Positions 1-12,544 of a stretch of DNA of 64,000 bases are shown piece by piece (positions within the stretch are counted from its first letter, which is position 1; every line of letters begins with the position of its first letter). The notes below the pieces were generated by a model. That model saw only the letters and a list, made by a program, of their open reading frames with translations, had not been told where the DNA came from and did no database searches. The translations under genes and the position numbers were made by a program. The DNA comes from Acinetobacter sp. WCHA55 (lineage in GTDB: Bacteria; Pseudomonadota; Gammaproteobacteria; Pseudomonadales; Moraxellaceae): contig NZ_CP032286.1 of assembly GCF_002165305.2 (NCBI RefSeq), positions 1,798,001 through 1,862,000 of the forward strand. The letters run 5' to 3'.

Positions 1-108
1 CGGAGCTATATGGGGCGTATCGAACGGGGTGAGGTAAATCTTACAGTAGAAAAACTATATGATATTGCGCATGCTTTAGAAGTTGAGGCTAAAAGCCTAT
101 TACCCTAA
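1..108 (+). CDS. C-terminal end of an XRE-type helix-turn-helix regulator (partial)
   Basis: The window opens inside a gene; the last 35 codons are visible and end in TAA. The fragment has the pattern of the end of an HTH_3 (Cro/CI) domain: a GRIERGEVNLTVEKLYDIA segment followed by A-x-x-L, with no room for a further domain. Such small repressors commonly precede defence operons and restrain them. It lies 107 bases before the giant nuclease-STAND gene on the same strand, so it may be its regulator or the first gene of its operon. The N-terminus is outside the window, so family and length cannot be checked. Confidence 0.7.
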   Translation, partial: RSYMGRIERGEVNLTVEKLYDIAHALEVEAKSLLP

Positions 109-215: not shown

Positions 216-3200
216 ATGGGAAATGCAGATTTAGTTAGAGCAAGTCGAGATGGAGATCAGTTTCATTACTTATGGGCTGCAAGAAAAGCACTTCTACTTT
301 TGAACCCTTTATCTGGATTACATACTCTGACTATTGAAGGTCCTAGTAAATCTGAATTTAACGAAGAAGTAGAAGAAGGTGAAGAAATTGTAGATGTGGG
401 AGAATACTACACTAGTAATGATTTTTCTGCTTCTTCTAAAATTATTTACACTCAACTTAAGCACTCAACATTACATGCACAAACACCGTTTGAGCCTAGT
501 AAACTACGTAATACTATTGAAGGTTTTTCTCAAAGATACCGCAGATTGATAGAAAAAAAGTCTAAGGATGAGGTGTTAAAAAAAGTAGAATTTCACTTCG
601 TTTCAAATAGAGCGATCAATGATGAGTTCTATAAGTCAATTAATGAACTTAAAGAAACAGGACATGTTACTAAAACTCAGAATCTTCAAAAATTAAAAGA
701 CTATACCGATTTAGATGGTCAAGCTTTAGAAGAATTTATTAAGCTTGTGAAATTCCCATCACAAGAGCCTAACTATATAGCCCAACGTGAGATTCTTGCT
801 CAAGACATCGCTTATTACCTACCAGGGGATGATGTTAATGCTCCGAATGAATTAAAGGAACTTATCACCCGTAAAGCACTTAGTGAAAATACAGAAAAAC
901 CAGAAATTACACGATACGATGTACTCCGTGCACTTAAAACCAACCCAGATGATCTGTTTCCAGTAAAGAACTTAATAAAAGAGTTAGAAAATATCGTAGA
1001 TAGACCTATCGTAAGAACACTGATAGATACTATTAATGAATCACATAGTCAAAAATTTATTATTCAAGCTGAAGGTGGTGTAGGTAAATCAATCTTAAGT
1101 ACACAAATACACAACTATATCCCTTCTGGATCATTGTCGATTGTCTATGACTGCTTTGGTAATGGTGACTACAGACAATCCTCATCGGCGAGACATACAC
1201 ATAAAATAGCATTAGTTCAAATTGCAAATGAATTAGCTGGATTAGGCTTATGCCATCCACTAATACCAACAACGAGTGCCGGTCCTAGCGAGTACATAAA
1301 AGCATTTTTGTTTAGATTAAAGCAGGTTTCTGAAAGGTTCTCCAATGAAAGTAAGCAGCTATTCATTGTTATTGATGCTGCTGATAACTCACAAATGGCA
1401 GCAGATGAATTTAATTATGGTCGATCTTTTATAACTGATTTATTGCAAGAAACCCTACCGCAAAATATTAAAATAATTGCTTTAGCGAGACCTTATAGGG
1501 TTGGGCTTTTAATACCTAAACAAGATATCGAAATTCTTGATTTAGAAGGCTTTAGTGAAAATGAAACAAAACAACATCTATTCAACTATTATCCTGATGT
1601 TTCGACACAAGACGTGATTGAATTTCATCGACTTACCAGTGGCAATCCACGAGTCCAAAGTATTGCTTTAGAACAAAATTTGACTTTGCATGAGATTCTT
1701 TCATTTTTCGGTGGAACGCCTAAAAGCGTAGAAGACACAATTAAGGATTTGTTAAATAAGGCAATTTTCAGTTTTAAAGAACAAAACTATTCCGAATCAG
1801 AAGAAATTGATTTACTGCTCACTTCAATTGCTATTTTACGCCCATTAATTCCACTGCAAATTTTATCTGATTTAACTAATATCAGGGCTGATCAAATAAG
1901 AAGTATTATTTCTGATATCGGTGGTCATCCAATTCGTCTTAGCGACAATAATATTCAATTTGTAGATGAGCCAACTGAGTCTTGGTTCCGTGAAATTTAT
2001 AAACCAAAAGATACTAGCTTGCTGAATGAGTTCATTCAGAAGCTTAAACCTCTCGCTGTAAATTCTGTATATGCTGCTTCTGTACTACCCCAAATTTTGA
2101 TGGATGCAGGTAATTTTGAGGAATTAGTTGAACTATCTTTAAATTCTGAAATGTTACCAACGAATTCCACCTTAGAAAAAAGAAAGGTCGAATTGCAACG
2201 CCTACAATTTGCAATTAAAGCTGGCCTAAAACTTGGTAAATATACAGATGTTGCGAAGTTGTCATTAAAGGCTGGTGGAGAAGTTGCCGCAGAGACTAGA
2301 CAACATCAATTACTTGAAAAAAATGTTGAGCTAGTTGGTACAACTTTTAATGATAATCAAATTCTAGAGTTAATCTCTGAAAAAGTATTTAAAGGTGGGT
2401 CATGGCATGGCTCGAAATATATTACTGAGGCTAAACTTCTCTCATATCGAGAAGAGTTCCGTGGAGAATCACGTAGTAAGCTTCGCATTGCAAATCACTG
2501 GTTAACTAGTTGGTTTGAACTTCCGGAAGATCATAAACATCATCAGGAAATAAAAGATAAGGAGATTAGTGATTGTTTTACTACCTTAATCAATTTAGAG
2601 GGTGTGGGTTATGCAATTAATTGGCTTCGTAGATGGCGTCCAAAAAGTGTAAGTTATAAAGTAGCTAAAATTGCAACTGAAGAACTGATTAAACTGAATA
2701 AGCGTGAAGTTATACAACAAATATTAGATAAATCAGGTAATAACATATTTTTGACTTTAGGTGTTATAGAGATACTTAAATTAAATCATTGTGTTATCCA
2801 TTCTGATAATTTTTCAAGAATTTTAAGATTATTGAGCTATGACAAAGTAAAACTTGATATTGGTCTAACCCCAATTCTTTGTTTTTTAGAAGTAGTTTTT
2901 AAGCAACAACTTTGTGTTTCTACAGAAGCACATCAGATTTTATCGAAATATATCCCCCCCCAAATACCGTATGAAATTACAGATCGATATGGACACTCAG
3001 ATAGAGTAAGTTATATGAAAGCTTATGCTTTACATAAAACATGGGAAAGTAAGTCATTAGAACTAGTTGATTTAGTAACTGAAAGATTAAAAGAGGAATT
3101 TTTAAAGGATACGTCTTATAGTTCATCCGAGGAAATTACTACGCTAAAACGAGATGTAGCAGCAGTTTTGCCATGGTACAAATTGTATGCTCGGTCAATC

Positions 3201-4735
3201 ATAGAGAAGATTTGCATTAAGGAACTCGATCAACTAATTGAACAAGCGAAATCAGACTCCCAGAAAGCTAAAGGATATTCTTATCGGGAATATGGTAATC
3301 ATCTAGAAAATGAAATTGCAAAAATTTGGTTCGATATTTTAATTTTAAATAATCATCTTAGCCAAGAAACTTATCCAGAGATAGAAAGGCATTTCAAGGA
3401 AAAAATTTATATTAATACACGTAATCATTTCACGCTTATTTTGGCTTTGCAGAAAAAATGTGAATTAGAAGATTATTGTTATGAAAATATAGAAAAAAAC
3501 TTAAAAGCTCTTGAGAATAGTGATGATCATGCAGAAACATTGGTGAGTGACTATATGTCTATTGCTCAATCAATTTTCCCTTTAGATCAAGCTGAAGCTA
3601 CTACGATATTAAATAAAGCCATTGAAGTAAGTAGTAACCTAGGTGAAGAAAATCTACAACGATGGAATGCATTACTTTGCTATGGCGTAAGAGCTGGACA
3701 GGAGCAAAATAATAGAAAACCACAGCTATGCTATCGTTTTAGTCAATGTGCTGAATTGACATATAAATATGTACATAGAGATAAACATTTTCCATGGGAT
3801 TACACAGTTGATGCAATTTACGATTTAGATCCTAACTCAGCATTTGCTATTGCTAGCCGTTGGCGTGATCGTAGATTTGGTGATGAAGATAGAATATTGG
3901 GCAATTTGCTGGATAAGTTACTTAAAGAACAACTTTTATCACCATTGATACCATTGGCTTTCAAAGCGATGGGAGCTACATATGACTTAGATAATCTATT
4001 AAGCTCTATTAAATCATTAGCTTTAAGTGATGAACTAAAAAGAAAAGTTTTACAAAGCTTCTATCTTTATATTGTTGTACCAAATCCATCAGAAAGACAT
4101 ATTAATCGCCTTAGAGATTTGGTCGAGGCATTTCATATAACAGATCAAACTGTTCAAGATTTTTTCTTATCCATTTGTAATTCAGAGGTTTATGTTCAGG
4201 TAGAAGAAGCACCTCATTCTTCAACCTACGACCAAGAAAAGTTTGATTGGGATGTGTTTTTTGAAAATTACACTGATTCAAATCGAAGTGTCGATTTTGA
4301 TTCAGCTTATAATGATTTTCAGAAATTGGAAAATAAGTATTGGATTAGAAAAGCCCTCTATTTACAGCTTTTAAAAAGAATAAGTGCTTCACAAGCGATA
4401 CCACTGATTAATTGGTGGTTCGATGATCCTAGAAATGGAATGTATGACTTAGATGATCTCCTAAAAGCTATACCATCTCGCTTTAAAAGAAGAATGTCAT
4501 TTTTAGCAGTTTTAGATTCGAGAATAAAACAATTTTTGAGAACACATCATGCTGATATTTATATAGATACTTATGGAAGTAATCTGAAATTACATATTTT
4601 AAGTGAGTTAACAGGGAAACCTAAGACTGATTACATTCAATCTCTCTTAGAGGGTATGAGTGAAAGCTCTATTACTCTAGAAAGTGAAAGCTTATTTAGG
4701 ATTGCTCATTTACTTACACCTATGATTGCACCAAA
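216..4735 (+). pseudogene. Avs-like Cap4-type nuclease/STAND NTPase, 5' part (split by IS66)
   Basis: This is the first 1506 codons of a giant protein. Residues 1-130 look like a Cap4/DUF4297-type PD-(D/E)xK nuclease: an RDGDQFHYLW start, Glu41 in IEGP, Asp60 in VDVGEYY, and Gln80-x-Lys82 in TQLKHS. A P-loop NTPase follows, with Walker A GGVGKS at 287-292, Walker B IVIDAAD at about 384-390 and a later ARPYR sensor-like motif. The remainder is long alpha-helical repeat sequence. Nuclease plus NTPase plus helical sensor is the architecture of Avs-type STAND anti-phage proteins, which sense a phage protein and then cut DNA. ATG216 has a good ribosome site (AGGTAAGG). The IS66 insertion supplies a stop at 4737. 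Whether the truncated product, with nuclease and NTPase but without the C-terminal part, is made or active is unknown. The exact Avs subtype is not assigned. Confidence 0.85.
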
Positions 4736-4816
4736 GTAAGCGTCCGCTGAACCCCACTTTTTCTAACTCATTAATACCGCGATAGTGTCCACTTAAATTT
4801 AAGTGGACACCTATTT

Positions 4817-5245
4817 ATGGATTTAAAGACAGTTATAGACAGTGCACCAACGCTAAAAAAGCCCCGTCGAACCTTCACAGCTGAATTTAAACATCAACTT
4901 ATTCAGCAATGCCAGCAGCCAGATACATCAGTGGCCAAGGTAGCAATGCAACATCAGATCAATGCCAATCTGCTACATAAATGGATTCGTCAGTCCAGAT
5001 CAATGCCCCCTGCATTAAAAACCCCATCCATTCCACAGACTGACTTTCTTCCGGTCATTCTTCACCCGACTCCAGTCAAACAAGAAGCACCTCTACCACC
5101 TGTGCCAGAGAAGAAAGCTGTCGCTCATATCAGGATTCCATTACATGAGGCACCAAGTTCCGCAAGGGATCAGATGATCGAGATCGACTGGCCGGTGGAG
5201 TCAGTAACTGAATTACTGTTGCTGATCCAGGGTTTGACTCAATGA
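4817..5245 (+). CDS. tnpA: IS66 accessory protein TnpA
   Basis: The 142-residue product starts with a helix-turn-helix of the IS66 OrfA/IS3-OrfA type (RRTFTAEFKHQLIQQC, then VAKVAMQHQINANLLHKWIRQ at about residues 18-58). A proline-rich linker and an acidic C-terminal segment follow. In IS66 elements this protein is needed with TnpB and TnpC for transposition and probably binds the element ends. It overlaps tnpB by four bases (ATGA), which suggests translational coupling. Confidence 0.93.
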   Translation: MDLKTVIDSAPTLKKPRRTFTAEFKHQLIQQCQQPDTSVAKVAMQHQINANLLHKWIRQSRSMPPALKTPSIPQTDFLPVILHPTPVKQEAPLPPVPEKKAVAHIRIPLHEAPSSARDQMIEIDWPVESVTELLLLIQGLTQ

Positions 5246-5577
5246 TTCGTATTGATGAGATCTGGTTGTCTACCCAGCCGATGGACATGCGTGCAGGGAT
5301 GGATACAGCCATGGCTCAGGTGCTGAGAGCCTTTGGCTACATCAAACCGCATTGCGCTTACCTGTTCTGTAATAAGCGTGGCCATCGTATGAAAGTGCTG
5401 GTGCATGATGGACTGGGTATCTGGCTGTGTGCCCGGCGGCTGGAACAGGGGAAATTCCACTGGGCTAAAGTTCACCAGGGTGAAAGTATGGCGATCAGCC
5501 CGGAGCAGTTACAGGCACTGATCCAGGGTTTGCCCTGGCAAAGAATCGGACTGCAGCAAGTGGTAACAATGCTCTAA
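5242..5577 (+). CDS. tnpB: IS66 accessory protein TnpB (Orf2-like)
   Basis: The 111-residue product matches the IS66 Orf2 family: an early DEIWLSTQPMDMRAGMD segment, a central YLFCNKRGHRMKVLVHDG block, then GIWLCARRLEQGKFHW. Length and motifs are typical of TnpB. Its biochemical role in transposition is poorly defined in the family. Its start overlaps the end of tnpA, and it lies 74 bases before tnpC. Confidence 0.94.
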   Translation: MIRIDEIWLSTQPMDMRAGMDTAMAQVLRAFGYIKPHCAYLFCNKRGHRMKVLVHDGLGIWLCARRLEQGKFHWAKVHQGESMAISPEQLQALIQGLPWQRIGLQQVVTML

Positions 5578-5651
5578 ACCAGGCTCATCCATTCTGCTAT
5601 TCTCCAAACGTTCTATTTCCTCTGCATCATGACCTCAGGCATACTGCGGTC

Positions 5652-7298
5652 ATGAATACGCTGCCTGATTTAAGCCAACTGACCCATGAACAACTGCTGG
5701 AATTTACCAGACAGTTGGCGATGCAGCATCAGTCTCTGGCACAATCTAAACAACAACTGGAACAATCAAATCAGCAATTAGATGCCAGAGTTCAACATTT
5801 TGAAGTCACCAATCAGCAATTAGATTCTAAAGTTCAACATCTTTCTATTCTCAATCAAAAATACGAGCATGAGCTTGCACTATTTAAACAGCATAAATTC
5901 GGCAGTAAAAACGAACATCTAACCGCAAAACAAATCCATCTCTGGGATGAAGCGGTTGAAGAAGATATTGCAGCGGTTGATCTGGAACTGGAACGACTGA
6001 ATGCAGATAAAACCAATGCAGCTGCACAGAAAGCCCCAGTCAACAAACCTAAACGTCGGCTGTTGCCAGATCATCTACACACCCTCCGTATTGAGCATGA
6101 ACCTGAATCAACACAATGCAGTTGTGGCTGTACCTTGCGTCGTATCGGTGAAGATGTCAGTGAAAAACTGAATTTCAGACCGGCACAGTTCTATAAGGAA
6201 CAGCATGTGCGTGGTAAATGGGTCTGTGATCAGTGTGACACTCTGACTCAGCAAGCGATGCCAGCCTATGTGATTGATAAAGGCATTGCTTCACCTGAAT
6301 TGCTTAGCCATGTGCTGGTGTCAAAGTATGCCGATCATTTGCCTTTGTACCGTCAACGTCAAATCTTTCTACGCGCAGGTGTTGATCTGTCTAGATCAAC
6401 GTTATCTGACTGGATTGGCCGCTGTGGGGTGGAACTGGAACCTCTGGCCAATGCCTTAAAACAGGTGGTACTGCAACAGCAGGTGATCCATGCAGATGAA
6501 ACACCGGTGACGGTCATGCAGATGGGTGAAAATGAGAAAAAGCCCAAAAAAGGTTATGTCTGGGCCTATGCCAGCACACAGTACAATCCAGTTCAGGCAG
6601 TGATCTATGACTTTCAAGATAGCCGTTCTGGCCAGCATGCTGAAGACTTCCTGAAAGGCTGGCAGGGTCATTTGGTCTGTGATGATTACAGTGGTTATAA
6701 AGCACGCTTTAGATCAGGTCAGGTCATTGAGGTGGGCTGCATGGCACATGCACGTCGTAAATTCCATGAACTACATGTGACCAAGAAAAGTCAGGTCGCT
6801 GAACAGGCATTAGTGCTGATTCAGAAATTATATGCGATAGAAGCAGAATTAAGAAAAAAGACGGATGGTACAGCGGAAGACCGCTGCGAATACCGACAAC
6901 AGCATAGTCAACCGGTCATGCAACAACTATATGAATGGCTCAACCAACATCAGCTGACGGTGCCATCGAGTTCTCCAACCGCCCGGGCGATCAATTACAG
7001 CCTAAAACGTTGGACTGCTTTAAGCCGCTATCTGGATGATGGCAATCTACCCATTGACAATAATTGGATAGAGAACCAAATGCGTCCCTGGGCCTTGGGG
7101 CGTAAGAACTGGCTATTTGCAGGTTCGCTGCGCAGTGGTCAACGAGCTGCCAATATCATGACTTTAATCCAGTCAGCAAAGCTGAATGGCTTGGATCCGT
7201 ATGCCTATTTAAGTGATGTGCTGAAAAGGTTGCCAACACATAAAGTGCCCCAAATAGAAGAATTACTACCTCACCGCTGGAAACCTGAACCCCGTTAA
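5652..7298 (+). CDS. tnpC: IS66 transposase TnpC
   Basis: This 548-residue DDE transposase has an N-terminal leucine-zipper/coiled coil (about residues 1-80), a Cys-rich zinc-binding motif CSCGCTLRR ... CDQC at about 155-197, and the catalytic core. Visible catalytic landmarks are IHADETPV, VCDDYSGYKA and the late NNWIENQMRPWALGRKNWLFAGS block that carries the Glu. The coiled coil contains a 42-base near-exact tandem duplication (from 5769 and 5811) encoding NQQLD-x-x-VQH twice. The frame is intact, so the element is probably still mobile. Confidence 0.96.
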   Translation: MNTLPDLSQLTHEQLLEFTRQLAMQHQSLAQSKQQLEQSNQQLDARVQHFEVTNQQLDSKVQHLSILNQKYEHELALFKQHKFGSKNEHLTAKQIHLWDEAVEEDIAAVDLELERLNADKTNAAAQKAPVNKPKRRLLPDHLHTLRIEHEPESTQCSCGCTLRRIGEDVSEKLNFRPAQFYKEQHVRGKWVCDQCDTLTQQAMPAYVIDKGIASPELLSHVLVSKYADHLPLYRQRQIFLRAGVDLSRSTLSDWIGRCGVELEPLANALKQVVLQQQVIHADETPVTVMQMGENEKKPKKGYVWAYASTQYNPVQAVIYDFQDSRSGQHAEDFLKGWQGHLVCDDYSGYKARFRSGQVIEVGCMAHARRKFHELHVTKKSQVAEQALVLIQKLYAIEAELRKKTDGTAEDRCEYRQQHSQPVMQQLYEWLNQHQLTVPSSSPTARAINYSLKRWTALSRYLDDGNLPIDNNWIENQMRPWALGRKNWLFAGSLRSGQRAANIMTLIQSAKLNGLDPYAYLSDVLKRLPTHKVPQIEELLPHRWKPEPR

Positions 7299-7329
7299 AA
7301 CTTGGCGATGGCGTTCAGCGGATGCTTAC

Positions 7330-9060
7330 GCACCAAATCAATCCTGTGAGGTTTTAGAGTATGGTCTAGGCTTACTGGAAAGTGATTTGGGATCAGATAT
7401 CGCAGACGGGCAATGGCGTGAGGAATTAGCACCACCAGAGAATATAATAGAATCTATATCAGGTTATATTTGGTCTTGCCTAGCATCTCCTTTCAATACT
7501 GTTAAATGGCAAGCGGCCCATACAGTTAAGTTACTTTGTGATTATGAGCAGAGAGAATTGTTGTCTAATTTAATTAATTTTATTAGTAATAAAAATTACC
7601 GAAGTTTTTACGATCACAAATTTGAATTTTATCAATACTCTGCTACTCAATGGTTATTTAATGCTTTACTAAAAGTATCTTATAGCCCGAATAACTTTTT
7701 GGCTGAGCATGTTGAAACGTTTAAGCAGTTAGCAAATCCAAATCGCCCACATTTGATGATTCGACTTCTCGCATCAAAAATTCTTCTAAATCTATTTAAT
7801 TTAAAGCTTATAAATCTAAATCAACAAGAAATTAAAACTTATCAGGGAGTTGGTAAATCTAATTTTAGTAAAGTAGAACGAGAAGCTATCGATCTTTCAA
7901 AATATTCAGATATGAATCAAGATGAAATTGATTCATTTGGTATTGATTTTGGTCCTTACTGGCTTGATCCATTGGGTGCGATGTTTGGGTTGCATCCTAA
8001 GCATATCTACTTTGAGACAACTCAAACATTAAAGAATGAAATTGGGTTTACAGAGAAGAAGCGTAAAGCCAATGATGTGCGCCATAAAATGAAAATTTAT
8101 GACTGGAAGCAAACAAGGCTTGATCATAGTTCAAGTCCAAAAGTTGAAGATTTAGATTTTTATCTGTCTTACCATGCAATGATGATCACCGCAGATAAAC
8201 TAATCCAAACAAAACCATTACTTGAAAGTGAATATTCATGGAGAAAGTTTGATGACTGGATTAAACAACATGATTTATCTTCTCTAGAACCTTATTGGCT
8301 GAGTGATTTTAAAGATCCATGTCCTCGAATAACGACAGAATGGCCTAAAGAAGATAGAAAAAATCCCTTAAACTGGTCTTATAGTTGTTCTCCCGTTGAT
8401 TATGATGATGTCATTTATCACAGCGATTTTGAACTTTGTTTATGGGGTGTTTGGTCAGAAGTGCAGAACTATAACCAAGCAAAAGACATTCGTATCCGTT
8501 CAAGTCTAGTAAGTCCAGAAACATCAAATGCTTTGTGGCGAAGTTTACAATGTACTGAATCAAGTTATGATTATCATTTACCTAGTGCTAATGATGAGAG
8601 GTTAGAATTTCAAGAAGATAATTTTCAGTTATTAGGTTGGATTAATGAGCAAGAAATTGATCTATCAAATTTTGATGATGATTTATGGGCAGCTTCATTA
8701 AGATATGAAATAACTAAACCATCAGAAGATATTATTTCTTTAATGAATATGAATTCGGATACATTAGGAAAAGATTGGTTTTATGAAGATGAAAAAGTTA
8801 TAAGCCACATCATTTGGGGTAAATATAAAAGTGAAGATTATGAATATTCAAATGGTTACAAGCTAAAAGTTAATAAAGAATTTATTGTCAATCTTCTTGA
8901 TAAAATTAATATGGATATGATCATTTCAGTAGATATCGATCGTAGACATAGATATGGTAGTTATGAATACAAACAAGATTCAAAAGGACTTGATGAATAT
9001 TTGCCAAGTAGTAAACGAGTTTATTTAATGAAGAAAAATGGAGAAATCTATGTCTACTGA
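7330..9060 (+). pseudogene. Avs-like STAND protein, 3' part (C-terminal sensor region)
   Basis: The second TSD copy (7330-7337) starts this fragment. Removing the IS and one duplication joins PMIAP to NQSCEVLEYGLG in frame and gives an uninterrupted 2080-residue protein. The segment begins with HEAT-like helical pairs (KWQAAHTVKLLCDY; RPHLMIRLLASKILLNLFNL), then a Trp- and Asp-rich tail of about 400 residues that I do not recognise. In Avs proteins the C-terminal region recognises the phage trigger, so this part probably sets target specificity. It has no obvious start of its own; TTG7387 is the first in-frame candidate, so it is probably not translated efficiently. Confidence 0.85.
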
Positions 9061-9697
9061 AAGCCTCATTGAATTAGGAAAGAAACTAGTACTAGAATTC
9101 AAACTAGAGGATAAAACAGATACATTATCTCAATGGATGCTTCACTATTTAGCAGAGTTATTTGAACGATATGATCTATCTACTTCTCCTGAAGAAAAGC
9201 GTACAGTATCTGTCGATATCAGAGATACTATTTTTAAGCTGTGGGAATTTCGCTACGAACAAGCTCACTCTCAAAGTAGCTTTAAGAATATAGAATCATT
9301 GGTATCAACATTAAAGAAGTTAAATTTAGATAATGATGATTATTTCTATACACCCTTGCGTAATTATAGAGATACAGAAAAAAATAAAAATCAAACTAGT
9401 CCTGAGTATTGGTACAACTATGCTCTTGAACTTGATAAAGCATCAAGGCTATTGATAAGAAATTGCATACTCAAAGGGTATGCGCTCAATGAAAAAGATA
9501 ACGAAGAAGTTGCCAAGTTAATTGAACAATTAGAAGCGTTAGATGCATATGAAACTTTATTTAGCAAATTTTATAGTGAACAATCTACTCACGACAAAGA
9601 ACAGAGAAACATCACACAAAATATCTCAAAGATAGATGAGTTGATAAATGCCCTAACAGAATTAAAAAGTGCTTATGAGGAAAAGTTAACTTCATAG
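9050..9697 (+). CDS. Small partner protein of the STAND locus (unrecognised family)
   Basis: The product is 215 residues from ATG9050. I prefer this start to ATG9038 because GGAG at 9040-9043 lies six bases before it. It overlaps the end of the giant gene by 11 bases, so the two are translationally coupled. The protein is predicted mostly helical, charged, without signal peptide or membrane segments. It ends in a probable coiled coil (ISKIDELINALTELKSAYEEKL). I do not recognise a domain. Its coupling suggests a dedicated regulator, adaptor or co-effector of the STAND nuclease. The function is inference from position only. Confidence 0.8.
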   Translation: MSTESLIELGKKLVLEFKLEDKTDTLSQWMLHYLAELFERYDLSTSPEEKRTVSVDIRDTIFKLWEFRYEQAHSQSSFKNIESLVSTLKKLNLDNDDYFYTPLRNYRDTEKNKNQTSPEYWYNYALELDKASRLLIRNCILKGYALNEKDNEEVAKLIEQLEALDAYETLFSKFYSEQSTHDKEQRNITQNISKIDELINALTELKSAYEEKLTS

Positions 9698-9820
9698 TCT
9701 AAGAATGTCTAGGTTAGATAAGAACAGGCATCCACTAAATTACGAGACTACCTGTTCAAATTAATAAGAATATGCAAATAAAATACTAAGTGTTTTATTA
9801 TCTTGATTTATTTTTATTTA

Positions 9821-10075
9821 CTAAGTTACTACTTTAACATTCCGTTTTTTAATTTTAAATGTTCTTCGATTAGTCATTCCTTTGGAAAGACTAGGGTTTC
9901 GACCAGACAATTTTTTAATGAAAACTGGTTGACCATGTGGAGTCATACTCCAGAGAATATCATTCTCTACGTAAAGTACTTTTCCACTACGGGCGGCTTT
10001 AATAAAGCTTTCTCGCAATATATAAGCAGCTGCTTTAGCGATATCTCGCTCAGATGTTGGCTTTCTAGTTGGCAT
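9821..10075 (-). CDS. Small basic hypothetical protein
   Basis: The 84-residue product is rich in Lys and Arg, especially at the C-terminus (NRRTFKIKKRNVKVV), with a middle WSMTPHGQPVFIKKL segment. There is a moderate ribosome site (GAGAG about eight bases before the ATG). It is convergent with the defence locus and stands alone in a gene-poor stretch. I recognise no family. The basic tail would suit nucleic-acid binding, but that is a guess. A chance ORF cannot be excluded; an overlapping frame on the other strand looks like its shadow. Confidence 0.5.
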   Translation of the reverse strand: MPTRKPTSERDIAKAAAYILRESFIKAARSGKVLYVENDILWSMTPHGQPVFIKKLSGRNPSLSKGMTNRRTFKIKKRNVKVVT

Positions 10076-10081
10076 ATCTAA

Positions 10082-10412
10082 AACTCTCAGAAGTGATAAT
10101 TTTCAATACTATGGCCAATTTCTGTTATAGAAAATGATTGATGCCTCATAAGCATAGAGTTTCTTTCGCAAAATTATAATATGAACTATTCGGCTAATAA
10201 AGATATGGCTAACTCAAAGTATTTTGATTGAAGGATACTTTTAATACAAAATTTATTCATACATTGAGTAATTTCAATCTTATTTCTATCTACTATCTAA
10301 ATTTCTGCTAGTTTCGATTATTACATAAAAAATTTAAGATGGCCTACTTAGAACTAGAATGACTGGTAGGGTACGAACAGGAATGGGTGGTAGAGTTATA
10401 TAAGAATATGCA
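10082..10412. other. Gene-free AT-rich spacer
   Basis: I see no ORF with a ribosome site, no RNA gene and no clear inverted repeat in these 330 bases. It separates the small basic ORF from the stranded 3' end of the SDR gene. Confidence 0.5.
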
Positions 10413-10559
10413 TCATAAAGCAGAATTGGGTTTAGCATGATTTAACTGAGCGAAATTTTGTATTTTTTCAATATCTTTCTCAATTGAATTTGAAACAATA
10501 TTCGGTAAAATCTGATTCACTTTCACAAATATTTTTTCAGGATATCCGACTTGATAATA
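10413..10559 (-). pseudogene. Stranded 3' end of the SDR gene (beyond IS256)
   Basis: Read on the minus strand, the open frame runs LYYQVGYPEKIFVKVNQIL and on to a TGA at 10413-10415. The 8-bp TSD (10552-10559) is shared with 11859-11866. Joining the two sides across one TSD copy keeps the frame (LYYQ then VGYPEK), which shows this is the missing C-terminus of the dehydrogenase. The restored protein is 274 residues from ATG12544. Confidence 0.88.
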
Positions 10560-11858
10560 GAGGGCGTTCAAAGTTCTGTGTCAGTAAATTTGACTAGATT
10601 TTAATTATATCATCTAATCGACCTTCAAAGTAAATGGATAATTGAGTAATGGTTTGTCCCCATTCCTGAATAGGCATTGTCCATTTTTCTGATGCCTGTT
10701 GAATACCAATATACAGTAATTTCATCAGACTATCCTCATTGGGGAAAGCTCCTTTGGTTTTGGTTAGTTTGCGGAATTGACGATGTACGGCTTCAACGGC
10801 ATTGGTGGTGTAAATCGGCTTCCTAATCGCTTTAGGGTATTTGAAATAGGCGGATAGTAGATGCCATTTGGTACGCCATGACTGAATGACCACACCATAT
10901 TTTTCGCCCCATTTTTCTTCTAGCTCATCCAGTGCTACTTCTGCCGCCCCTTTGGTATCAGCACGGTAAATTGGCTTTAAATCAGCCATAAATGCCTTCT
11001 GATCTTTACTGGCAACATAGCGTAAAGAATTACGGATTTGATGAACGATACACAGTTGTATTTCTGTTTGAGGGTAAATCGCTGCTATGGCTTCGGGGAA
11101 ACCTTTTAGTCCATCTACACAGGCAATCAGAATATCCTGAACACCACGATTTTGTAGGTCTGTCAGTACACTAAGCCAATGGTTCGCCCCTTCGCTTTCC
11201 GACAAATGCAAGCCGAGTAGTTCCTTCTTACCTTCAACATTTAAAGCTAAAATGGTATAGATCGCTTTGCTCACATAAACACCTTTATCCTTCACTTTGT
11301 AATGTATGGCATCTAACCAAACAAAGGGATAAATTGTATCGAGTGGGCGTTGTTTCCATGCTTGTAACTGAGGGAGGAGCTTATCTGTAATATTGGTGAT
11401 AGCACCATCTGAAATCTCCAATCCATACATATCAGCAACATGCTTTTGAATATCACGATAGCTCATACCAAGTGCATAGAGTGATATGATTTTATTGTCA
11501 ATTTCTTCTGATAATTTGGTCTGGTTCTTTTTAACTAACTGTGGCTCAAATTCACCATTTCGATCTCTAGGGGTTTCAAGCTCAAATGAACCTGATGTAG
11601 ATTTTACTGTCTTGCGAGTATAGCCATTGCGGCGATTACCTTGTTTCGGATTCGCTTCAATGTAATTCTCGATTTCTGCTTCAAGAGCAGCTTCGGTCAG
11701 CTGTTTAATTAAAGGGGTGAGTATGCCATTTTCTCCAGTCAGTGCTTGTCCTGACTGGAGTTGTTTTAAGGCTGTTTCAAAATCAAATGTAGTTGCCATA
11801 GTGCATCATTCCTGTTTTTAACAGTTTAAGGAAATGACACAGTTTTTTGAACACTACC
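10560..11858 (-). mobile_element. Complete IS256-family insertion sequence, 1299 bp
   Basis: The terminal inverted repeats are about 24 bp and imperfect. The left end contains GCGTTCAAAGTTCTGTGTCA; the right end, read inward, contains GTGTTCAAAAAACTGTGTCA. An 8-bp duplication TGATAATA flanks the element at 10552-10559 and 11859-11866. It holds one intact transposase gene. It interrupts the SDR gene near its 3' end and supplies a false C-terminus to the upstream part. Confidence 0.95.
10594..11799 (-). CDS. IS256-family (mutator-type) transposase
   Basis: The 401-residue DDE transposase has an N-terminal DNA-binding region with NRRNGYTRKTVKSTSGSFEL, then FVWLDAIHYKVK (first Asp), ACVDGLKGFPEAI (second Asp) and TTNAVEAVHRQFRKLTK (Glu with the family signature after it). 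Length and motifs are complete, so it is probably active. Its start overlaps the 3' end of the broken SDR reading frame by chance. Confidence 0.96.
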   Translation of the reverse strand: MATTFDFETALKQLQSGQALTGENGILTPLIKQLTEAALEAEIENYIEANPKQGNRRNGYTRKTVKSTSGSFELETPRDRNGEFEPQLVKKNQTKLSEEIDNKIISLYALGMSYRDIQKHVADMYGLEISDGAITNITDKLLPQLQAWKQRPLDTIYPFVWLDAIHYKVKDKGVYVSKAIYTILALNVEGKKELLGLHLSESEGANHWLSVLTDLQNRGVQDILIACVDGLKGFPEAIAAIYPQTEIQLCIVHQIRNSLRYVASKDQKAFMADLKPIYRADTKGAAEVALDELEEKWGEKYGVVIQSWRTKWHLLSAYFKYPKAIRKPIYTTNAVEAVHRQFRKLTKTKGAFPNEDSLMKLLYIGIQQASEKWTMPIQEWGQTITQLSIYFEGRLDDIIKI

Positions 11859-12544
11859 TGATAATAAAGCTTATCGTTTTGTAAAAATTGATAAAGCTCT
11901 TCTGCAACAAACTCAGGACTATCCATTTTCACACCCAGTTTAGCATTCATTTCTACGACAACAGGACTATTCATTGCTGTATCCGTTGCCCGCGGAGAAA
12001 AATATTTAAACAGAATTGCTGAGTTTGAATATTCTCGTGCTAAAGCTTCTGTTGCGCCACGTAAAGCAAACTTGCTTGCGCAATAACTCACATAACCCGG
12101 ATAACCAATACTGCCAAAGGTTGAGCCCATATTAATAATTTGGCTTGGTGCATCTTTTGACATTAACGGGATTATTTTCTGAATCATTTCTAGTGGGTAA
12201 ACCACATTAACCATCATCATTTGTTCAATCACTTCGGCTGACTGATGACTAAATAATGAGAAATCATTAATCCCTGCATTGTTAATATAATAGTTAATCG
12301 TTACATTTTGCTGTGCTAATGCCTGAATAAATTCCTCCCGACTTATAGCATCACTCAGATCACAACAAAGATTACTTAATTTTAATAAAGGAAACTCTCC
12401 ACTTAATTGCTTCTGCATTTGCTGTAAAGATTCAACATTACGCGCAACCAAAATTACATTTACGTTATGGGTGCACAAATTCTCAGCAATCGCTTTTCCA
12501 ATCCCGCCCGTCGCTCCGACAATTACCGCTGTTAAATTTGACAT
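11859..12544 (-). pseudogene. Short-chain dehydrogenase/reductase, 5' part (3' end cut by IS256)
   Basis: The N-terminus has the Rossmann motif VGATGGIGKA (TGxxxGxG type), then NNAG in YYINNAGIND, the catalytic Ser in NMGSTFG, and Tyr/Lys in YVSYCASK. It is therefore a classical SDR using NAD(P). I start it at ATG12544; a GTG at 12556 is also possible. The native frame is lost at 11859, and translation would continue about 20 codons into IS256. All catalytic residues lie before the break, so partial activity is possible. It is the last gene of the hemolysin/ligase/TauD operon and probably oxidised or reduced the pathway product. Confidence 0.9.

What the first reader, a model, noticed from the sequence alone, without database searches (positions are those of the whole stretch)
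216..9060. A 2080-residue Cap4-like nuclease/STAND gene split by IS66, restorable exactly
The 8-bp repeat GCACCAAA on both sides and matching inverted repeats define the IS66 to the base. Deleting the IS and one repeat joins two frames into a single 2080-codon gene with a PD-(D/E)xK nuclease (Glu41, Asp60, Gln80-x-Lys82), a P-loop NTPase and a long C-terminal sensor region I cannot match to a known Avs type. Close relatives without the IS may carry a working, undescribed anti-phage STAND system.
Basis: partly seen in the sequence, partly recalled or inferred. Interest (0 to 1): 0.85.

Follow-up and report, generated by a model that had tools for sequence, protein, structure and literature searches.

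The report
IS66-split Avs3 behind shared defence switch
The split gene is a broken copy of a known bacterial antiviral alarm protein (Avs3), but just upstream sits a small regulatory switch, of the kind known from restriction-modification systems, that also stands in front of many different antiviral systems in other Acinetobacter species.

Summary
An IS66 element (4736-7329, 8-bp target repeats) splits one reading frame whose halves match SeAvs3 (PDB 8dgc) and PADLOC Avs3a end to end, with Avs3b downstream. So this is Avs3 (AVAST type 3), not an unmatched STAND. Intact relatives exist.

The unexpected part lies at the window's left edge. The xre gene ending at 1-108 resembles R-M controller (C) proteins. 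Upstream are a C-box-like operator and a divergent 159-aa protein (p159), predicted winged-helix. The operator core occurs at 54 places in 45 of 175 Acinetobacter genomes and in 0 of 144 others of the order. xre follows in 54 of 54; a p159-family gene is divergent in 41 by profile, 44 with tblastn. By my tally 30 of 54 lead into a same-strand defence operon: 12 R-M, 18 of ten other kinds; 20 show none I recognised. In one genome CBASS replaces Avs3 between the same flanks.

I read it as a swappable C-protein-type control cassette. Control is inferred; nothing was tested at the bench.

The parts
1..108 (+). 3' end of xre (74 aa, C-protein-like). Its start, the C-box-like operator and the divergent p159 gene lie just left of the window (L002:9884, about 9832-9880, and 9331-9807 on the minus strand)
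216..4739 (+). avs3a, N-terminal part (ORF of 1507 aa that runs into the IS): nuclease, STAND NTPase, first part of the sensor region
336..461 (+). PD-(D/E)xK motif residues Glu41, Asp60, Gln80-x-Lys82
   Evidence: invariant in 9 of 9
1035..1490 (+). P-loop NTPase region (NPHP3_N, residues 274-425)
   Evidence: E 8.2e-9
4728..4735 (.). 8-bp target repeat, left copy
4736..7329 (.). IS66-family element, 2594 bp
4817..5245 (+). IS66 accessory gene, tnpA-like (142 aa)
   Evidence: name by position and recall
5242..5577 (+). IS66 accessory gene, tnpB-like (111 aa)
   Evidence: name by position and recall
5652..7298 (+). IS66 transposase (548 aa)
   Evidence: PF03050 3.9e-106
7330..7337 (.). 8-bp target repeat, right copy
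7339..9060 (+). avs3a, C-terminal part (573 aa)
9050..9697 (+). avs3b (215 aa), overlapping the end of avs3a
9824..10075 (-). p84, small unknown gene found at 7 of the 54 cassette places, this one included

Best explanation
This is an Avs3 (AVAST type 3) locus, now split by a recent IS66 insertion and probably inactive. It sits behind a control cassette made of a C-protein-like XRE regulator, a C-box-like operator and a divergently encoded winged-helix protein, p159. Proposed working: the conserved sigma-70-like promoter on the minus strand, which overlaps the operator, makes p159 first; xre and the defence operon behind it start from a weaker promoter. XRE binds the operator, shuts off p159 and activates, then limits, its own operon, so the defence gene comes on late and in a controlled way, as the endonuclease does in C-controlled type II R-M systems. 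p159, standing where the methyltransferase gene stands in some such systems, is most likely a second repressor or sensor. The same cassette stands in front of many other defence systems, and the cargo behind it can be exchanged. Shown by sequence: Avs3 identity, the insertion, cassette conservation, cargo diversity, one cargo swap. Inferred: DNA binding, order of expression, the role of p159, loss of defence.
For: Avs3. XRE: best PDB matches are the R-M controllers C.AhdI (5.5e-9), the 3clc group and C.BclI. Operator consensus GAGGATTATAGTCCGTGGATATATAGTCCTC, against the published Esp1396I sites and the GACTTATAGTC consensus of two sites about 4 bp apart (passages). Of 41 xre loci picked by protein match, 38 hold the core pattern within 200 bp upstream. 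Pattern at 54 places in 45 of 175 genomes, reversed-pattern control 0 of 175. xre match starts at +50 to +76 in 54 of 54. p159 profile hit in 41 of 54, plus 3 by tblastn. Minus-strand promoter TTGA..-17-TATAAT in 50 of 54; 51 of 54 score 10 or more of 12, against 2.1% of shuffles. p159 model: winged-helix order plus helical hairpin, mean pLDDT 81. Cargo. Swap.
Against: 20 of 54 places have no defence operon that I recognised on the xre side, and 4 have R-M genes facing it. p159 was not found next to the operator in 10 of 54 (some at contig ends). In several subgroups the second half-site is poor (for example TTAAAACACTTC). The TATAAT box is part of the search pattern, so only the -35 box is independent. 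C-protein incompatibility predicts few genomes with two copies; I saw 8 against 6.8 expected, and no operator divergence within genomes (P 0.28 and 0.57). Foldseek matches for p159 are weak (none at E 0.001 or better). Loci are not independent (several are near-copies). The cargo is not always the first gene behind xre (L089, L160).
Confidence: 0.8

Rival explanations
1. xre and p159 are passengers that mark a mobile island or integration site and do not control the defence genes behind them.
For: 20 of 54 places lack a recognised defence operon on the xre side; 4 (L091, L102, L119, L164) lie next to a recombinase-like set (name by recall). p84 recurs at 7 of 54.
Against: Same-strand defence genes follow xre in 30 of 54; in loci picked by protein match the operator is kept in 38 of 41 while p159 falls to 20-30% identity; cargo changes at about the end of xre.
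Confidence: 0.17
2. xre/p159 is a phage-type repressor pair or toxin-antitoxin-like module protecting its own maintenance.
For: Two divergent DNA-binding-type proteins around overlapping promoters resemble lysogeny switches (recalled); XRE also hits HipB-type and RstR models, below their cutoffs.
Against: Best PDB sequence matches are C proteins and the operator is C-box-like; the p159 model reads as a winged helix.
Confidence: 0.1
3. An undescribed STAND system unrelated to known Avs types.
For: In Pfam only NPHP3_N passes its cutoff; no Cap4 model hit.
Against: End-to-end matches to Avs3a models and SeAvs3.
Confidence: 0.02
4. The 1507-aa fragment keeps some activity, for example as an unregulated or dominant-negative protein.
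For: Nuclease and NTPase regions are intact and the frame is open up to the insertion.
Against: It lacks the 573-residue C-terminal part. 3 of 6 Acinetobacter genomes with the gene carry broken copies with different IS-like sequences, which fits plain loss.
Confidence: 0.1

Closest known systems
Avs3 / AVAST type 3 (SeAvs3, PDB 8dgc; NCBIfam NF041816, NF041817)
   Same: Collinear over the whole length in two pieces; same nuclease residues and P-loop; Avs3b next to it
   Different: Divergent Acinetobacter clade (38% identity to named Avs3a-group proteins), piece scores below the NCBIfam cutoff, split by IS66, own control cassette upstream. Terminase sensing (recalled) not tested
R-M controller (C) proteins and C-boxes (C.AhdI, C.Esp1396I, C.BclI)
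   Same: Small HTH regulator just upstream of the effector operon; double operator with TATAGTC cores and a GTG spacer; divergent promoter overlapping it
   Different: 18 of the 30 same-strand defence operons are not R-M; p159 stands where a methyltransferase stands in some C-controlled systems
HTH regulator of an A. baumannii R-M system (PMC10287943, passages)
   Same: HTH regulator controlling a methylase gene in a defence region of the same genus
   Different: R-M only in the passages seen; its sequence was not compared here
BrxR/CapW WYL regulators (PMC9122601)
   Same: One regulator family near many defence kinds (164 of 347 homologues with defence genes within 50 kb downstream)
   Different: Here an XRE without WYL domain, a conserved operator and a divergent partner
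RptR (PMC12255303)
   Same: Small regulator (79 aa) in front of a defence island
   Different: Different binding site (TAGCTA); mostly with type I R-M (54 of 117)
HsdC of Mollicutes (PMC5282649, abstract)
   Same: C-protein relative on a type I R-M operon
   Different: Other binding motif; its other targets are clpB and a tRNA cluster

Membership tests
Avs3 (AVAST type 3) | Full-length collinearity with Avs3a | tested here: met
   in two pieces
Avs3 (AVAST type 3) | N-terminal PD-(D/E)xK nuclease residues | tested here: met
Avs3 (AVAST type 3) | STAND P-loop | tested here: met
Avs3 (AVAST type 3) | avs3b downstream | tested here: met
   PADLOC 6.8e-32; NCBIfam 111.8 bits, below its cutoff of 200
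Avs3 (AVAST type 3) | NCBIfam equivalog cutoff (2800 bits) | tested here: inconclusive
   pieces scored apart: 1526 and 479 bits; no intact relative was scored
Avs3 (AVAST type 3) | Activation by phage large terminase (recalled) | not testable with these tools
   needs an experiment
IS66 | DDE_Tnp_IS66 transposase, 8-bp target repeats, inverted ends | tested here: met
R-M controller protein | Small HTH homologous to solved C proteins | tested here: met
R-M controller protein | Double C-box upstream of its own gene | tested here: met
   sequence likeness only, second site poor in some subgroups
R-M controller protein | Binding and activation/repression of its promoter | not testable with these tools
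   needs gel shift and reporters
R-M controller protein | Linked to an R-M system | tested here: inconclusive
   by my tally 12 of 54 same-strand R-M, 4 facing; Avs3 is the cargo at the 4 Avs3 loci
BrxR/CapW | WYL domain | tested here: not met
   XRE matches only HTH-type families plus one chance-level hit, p159 one weak DLP_helical hit; no WYL

The most novel reading that the evidence does not exclude
Acinetobacter uses one exchangeable C-protein-type switch with a winged-helix partner in place of the methyltransferase as a general installation timer, perhaps with phage sensing by p159, for unrelated and often cell-killing defence systems; because the operator is near-identical, cassettes in one cell could cross-talk as one regulon.
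Probability: 0.35. Interest if true: 0.8.

Novelty: new variant of a known kind. Interest (0 to 1): 0.58.

Why it matters
How dangerous defence genes are kept quiet, and how they settle in a new cell, is poorly known. C-protein circuits are a classic answer for R-M systems. Finding one operator and regulator pair in front of Avs3, Avs2-like, CBASS, Gabija, Thoeris, Mokosh, GapS6 and PD-Lambda-2 genes in one genus suggests the timer travels separately from the weapon, and it gives a 17-base search key for finding new defence systems (for example the 1906-aa Cap4-NACHT protein in L126). None of the papers listed by my searches (titles and starts of abstracts seen, passages of a few read) was seen to describe C-box control of non-R-M defence; most subscription papers are not held.

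Tried and rejected
Undescribed STAND type: rejected. C-protein incompatibility (mutual exclusion, described in passages of reviews PMC3874152 and PMC12707154): tested on copy number and on operator similarity within genomes, not supported. Phage or viral carriage of the Avs3a C-terminal part: no match in phages, no relative in viral contigs. Operator outside the genus: 0 of 144 other genomes of the order, exact pattern only; the reversed control pattern hit once there (G277). The p159-xre DNA matched 37 plasmid records, 35 Acinetobacter and 2 Pseudomonas, the latter over 9% of the query only; their cargo was not examined. Avs3b: no PDB match; its structure job had not finished at the last look. 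Relatives of p159 in Pfam, NCBIfam and the PDB by sequence: none convincing. VIA-align rows for p159 are mostly helical hairpins, with some MarR/PadR-type rows lower down, and say little. Random-region control: 69 ORFs of at least 250 aa from 20 regions gave 10 PADLOC families with one member each at 1e-20 (so 1 to 10 proteins), of methyltransferase, SspH, mad8 and PDC-M42C types; it cannot be set exactly against the cassette tally, because there I scanned chosen representatives, mostly at 1e-5. Paper searches on Avs3 listed none on Avs3 itself; two searches listed nothing on this cassette; PMC12421847 holds none of the regulator words I asked for.

Full report
Observation. The finding is accurate to the base. 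The 8-bp repeat stands at 4728-4735 and 7330-7337, and between the copies lies an IS66 element of 2594 bp with inverted ends and an IS66 transposase gene. The reading frames on both sides fit one gene of 2080 codons. Five Acinetobacter relatives read straight through the point of insertion, two of them broken elsewhere, and the first 30 rows of the database search are 2078-2101 aa. A second identical IS66 copy, split over the two ends of contig C6, suggests a recent jump.

Identity. It is not an unmatched STAND. The N piece matches PADLOC Avs3a 1-1510 and the C piece 1517-2087 of 2090; both match SeAvs3, PDB 8dgc, over 3-1507 and 1515-2079. The gene behind is Avs3b. In one search the first 30 rows are at 82-92% identity to the query; the next full-length rows are at 81, 68, 58, 54 and 43%, with some fragments of the close group between them. 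Where a source names a close row it says hypothetical protein, in one case Nephrocystin 3-like domain; farther rows are named Avs3a. The NCBIfam cutoff of 2800 bits may be why: the two pieces score 1526 and 479, but no intact relative was scored.

Spread and decay. In the genus survey avs3a was found in 5 of 175 genomes (N part, E 1e-100) and avs3b in 7 of 175, which adds G166, with a C-terminal part of avs3a, and G057, with a 29-aa remnant. Of the six genomes with avs3a, three are intact (G103, G121, G149) and three are broken: the window's by IS66; A. brisouii at two contig breaks whose ends look like IS ends; A. tjernbergiae where the contig starts with a transposase-like stretch abutting avs3a (IS1-like by eye). 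The gene is a large target, and I have no matched control for this rate. Avs3a relatives also sit on plasmids (13 records).

The upstream cassette. The window opens inside a 74-aa XRE gene (1-108). To its left (locus L002) are an operator and a divergent 159-aa gene, p159. The XRE's best PDB matches are C.AhdI, the controllers of the 3clc group and C.BclI. In 41 loci picked by protein match to xre, 38 hold the operator core within 200 bp upstream, also where the p159 proteins share only 20-30% identity. The consensus over the 54 pattern hits, GAGGATTATAGTCCGTGGATATATAGTCCTC (17 of its positions are set by the search), resembles the Esp1396I operator sites and the GACTTATAGTC consensus printed in PMC3758141 and PMC4321490 (passages read).

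How general it is. The pattern GGATTATARNCCGTGGA occurs at 54 places in 45 of 175 Acinetobacter genomes; the reversed control occurs in none of them. Among 145 genomes of the order only the window's own has it, while the control hit one. An xre match begins at +50 to +76 in 54 of 54. A divergent protein matching the p159 profile is present in 41 of 54, at E 1.3e-5 or better for 100,000 sequences; some of these sequences were in the profile. Three more (L091, L103, L105) have a tblastn match beside xre. A minus-strand promoter TTGA..-17-TATAAT overlaps the operator in 50 of 54; its -10 box belongs to the search pattern, its -35 box does not. p159 is predicted with the order helix-strand-helix-helix-strand-strand followed by a long helical hairpin (mean pLDDT 81, lower in the first 50 residues), the winged-helix order; Foldseek's top hits are DNA-binding, PadR- and MarR-like, but weak.

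What stands behind it. My tally over the 54, from representatives scanned with PADLOC, Pfam or NCBIfam and from BLAST relation to them: same strand as xre, 30 of 54: type I R-M 10, Avs3 4, Avs2 or Avs2-like 3, Mokosh 3, GapS6 2, and one each of CBASS, Gabija, Thoeris TIR, PD-Lambda-2, Cap4-NACHT STAND (unnamed), PDC-M60A (a PADLOC candidate), a C5 methyltransferase, and type III R-M. System names follow the model names. Facing xre, R-M type genes: 4 (L106; L114, L115, L170 by 25-31% relation to the L113 methyltransferase). No recognised defence operon, other cargo, or contig end: 20; not every gene there was scanned. The loci are not independent: L161, L162, L165 and L174 are near-copies in their R gene, as are L116, L117 and L169. 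Of 69 ORFs from random regions between 1 and 10 had a PADLOC hit at 1e-20.

Cargo exchange. In G057 the left flank (p159, operator, xre) is 74.5% identical to the window's over 829 bp. Then comes a CBASS operon (phospholipase, cyclase, E1-E2, JAB), and the match to the window resumes near the end of avs3b and runs on through p84 at 84.9% over 608 bp. So a defence system was exchanged behind the cassette. Conversely, Avs3 genes of 88-89% identity (N part) sit behind p159 proteins of 23-28% identity to the window's.

Mechanism. By analogy with type II R-M (reviews PMC3874152 and PMC12707154, passages read; Kpn2I study PMC6237814, passages), XRE should activate its own operon at low level, repress it at high level and close the divergent promoter. 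p159 would then be the early product. This ordering is inferred. One prediction of the analogy, incompatibility of cassettes sharing an operator, was tested and not supported: 8 genomes carry two or more against 6.8 expected, and operators within a genome are no less alike than permuted ones.

Known and new. Regulators that accompany many defence kinds are known (BrxR, PMC9122601, abstract and section 22 read), as are a type I R-M regulator (RptR, PMC12255303, abstract and passages), a C-protein relative on a type I R-M operon (PMC5282649, abstract), and an HTH regulator of an A. baumannii R-M system (PMC10287943, passages). A C-box-type cassette in front of STAND, CBASS and other non-R-M systems was not seen in the papers my searches listed. 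I rate it a new variant of a known kind. The split gene itself is ordinary.

Noticed in passing
L126 (G155:C9), 4668-10385 and 10388-12190 on the minus strand: A 1906-aa protein with a weak Cap4 nuclease match (below cutoff) and NACHT/NPHP3_N matches above cutoff, next to a 601-aa protein without PADLOC or Pfam hits, behind xre; no NCBIfam Avs model matched. Possibly an unnamed STAND type.
   Followed up: partly
window 9824-10075 (-): p84, an 84-aa unknown protein found at 7 of 54 cassette places, sometimes right behind xre (L161-L163).
   Followed up: partly
L107, L109, L111, L122: A conserved gene set (about 448, 531 and 710-785 aa) facing xre; the two proteins scanned had no PADLOC hit.
   Followed up: partly
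L103, L108: Radical SAM protein, DUF6375 protein and a 1332-1335-aa Avs2-like protein lie in a row behind xre.
   Followed up: partly
L013, L014, L009 (A. brisouii) and L018 (A. tjernbergiae): Other Acinetobacter avs3a copies broken at contig ends by IS-like sequence, so three of six genomes carry broken copies.
   Followed up: partly
L127 (G000:C6:251600-266000): The window's own genome carries a second, related xre (74%) on the 372-kb contig, in front of type I R-M-like genes (assigned by relation to L096), without the operator pattern.
   Followed up: partly
window 10594-11799 (-): Mutator-type (Transposase_mut) transposase gene right of the locus; IstAB-like genes (name by recall) lie left of it in L002 6543-8931.
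   Followed up: no
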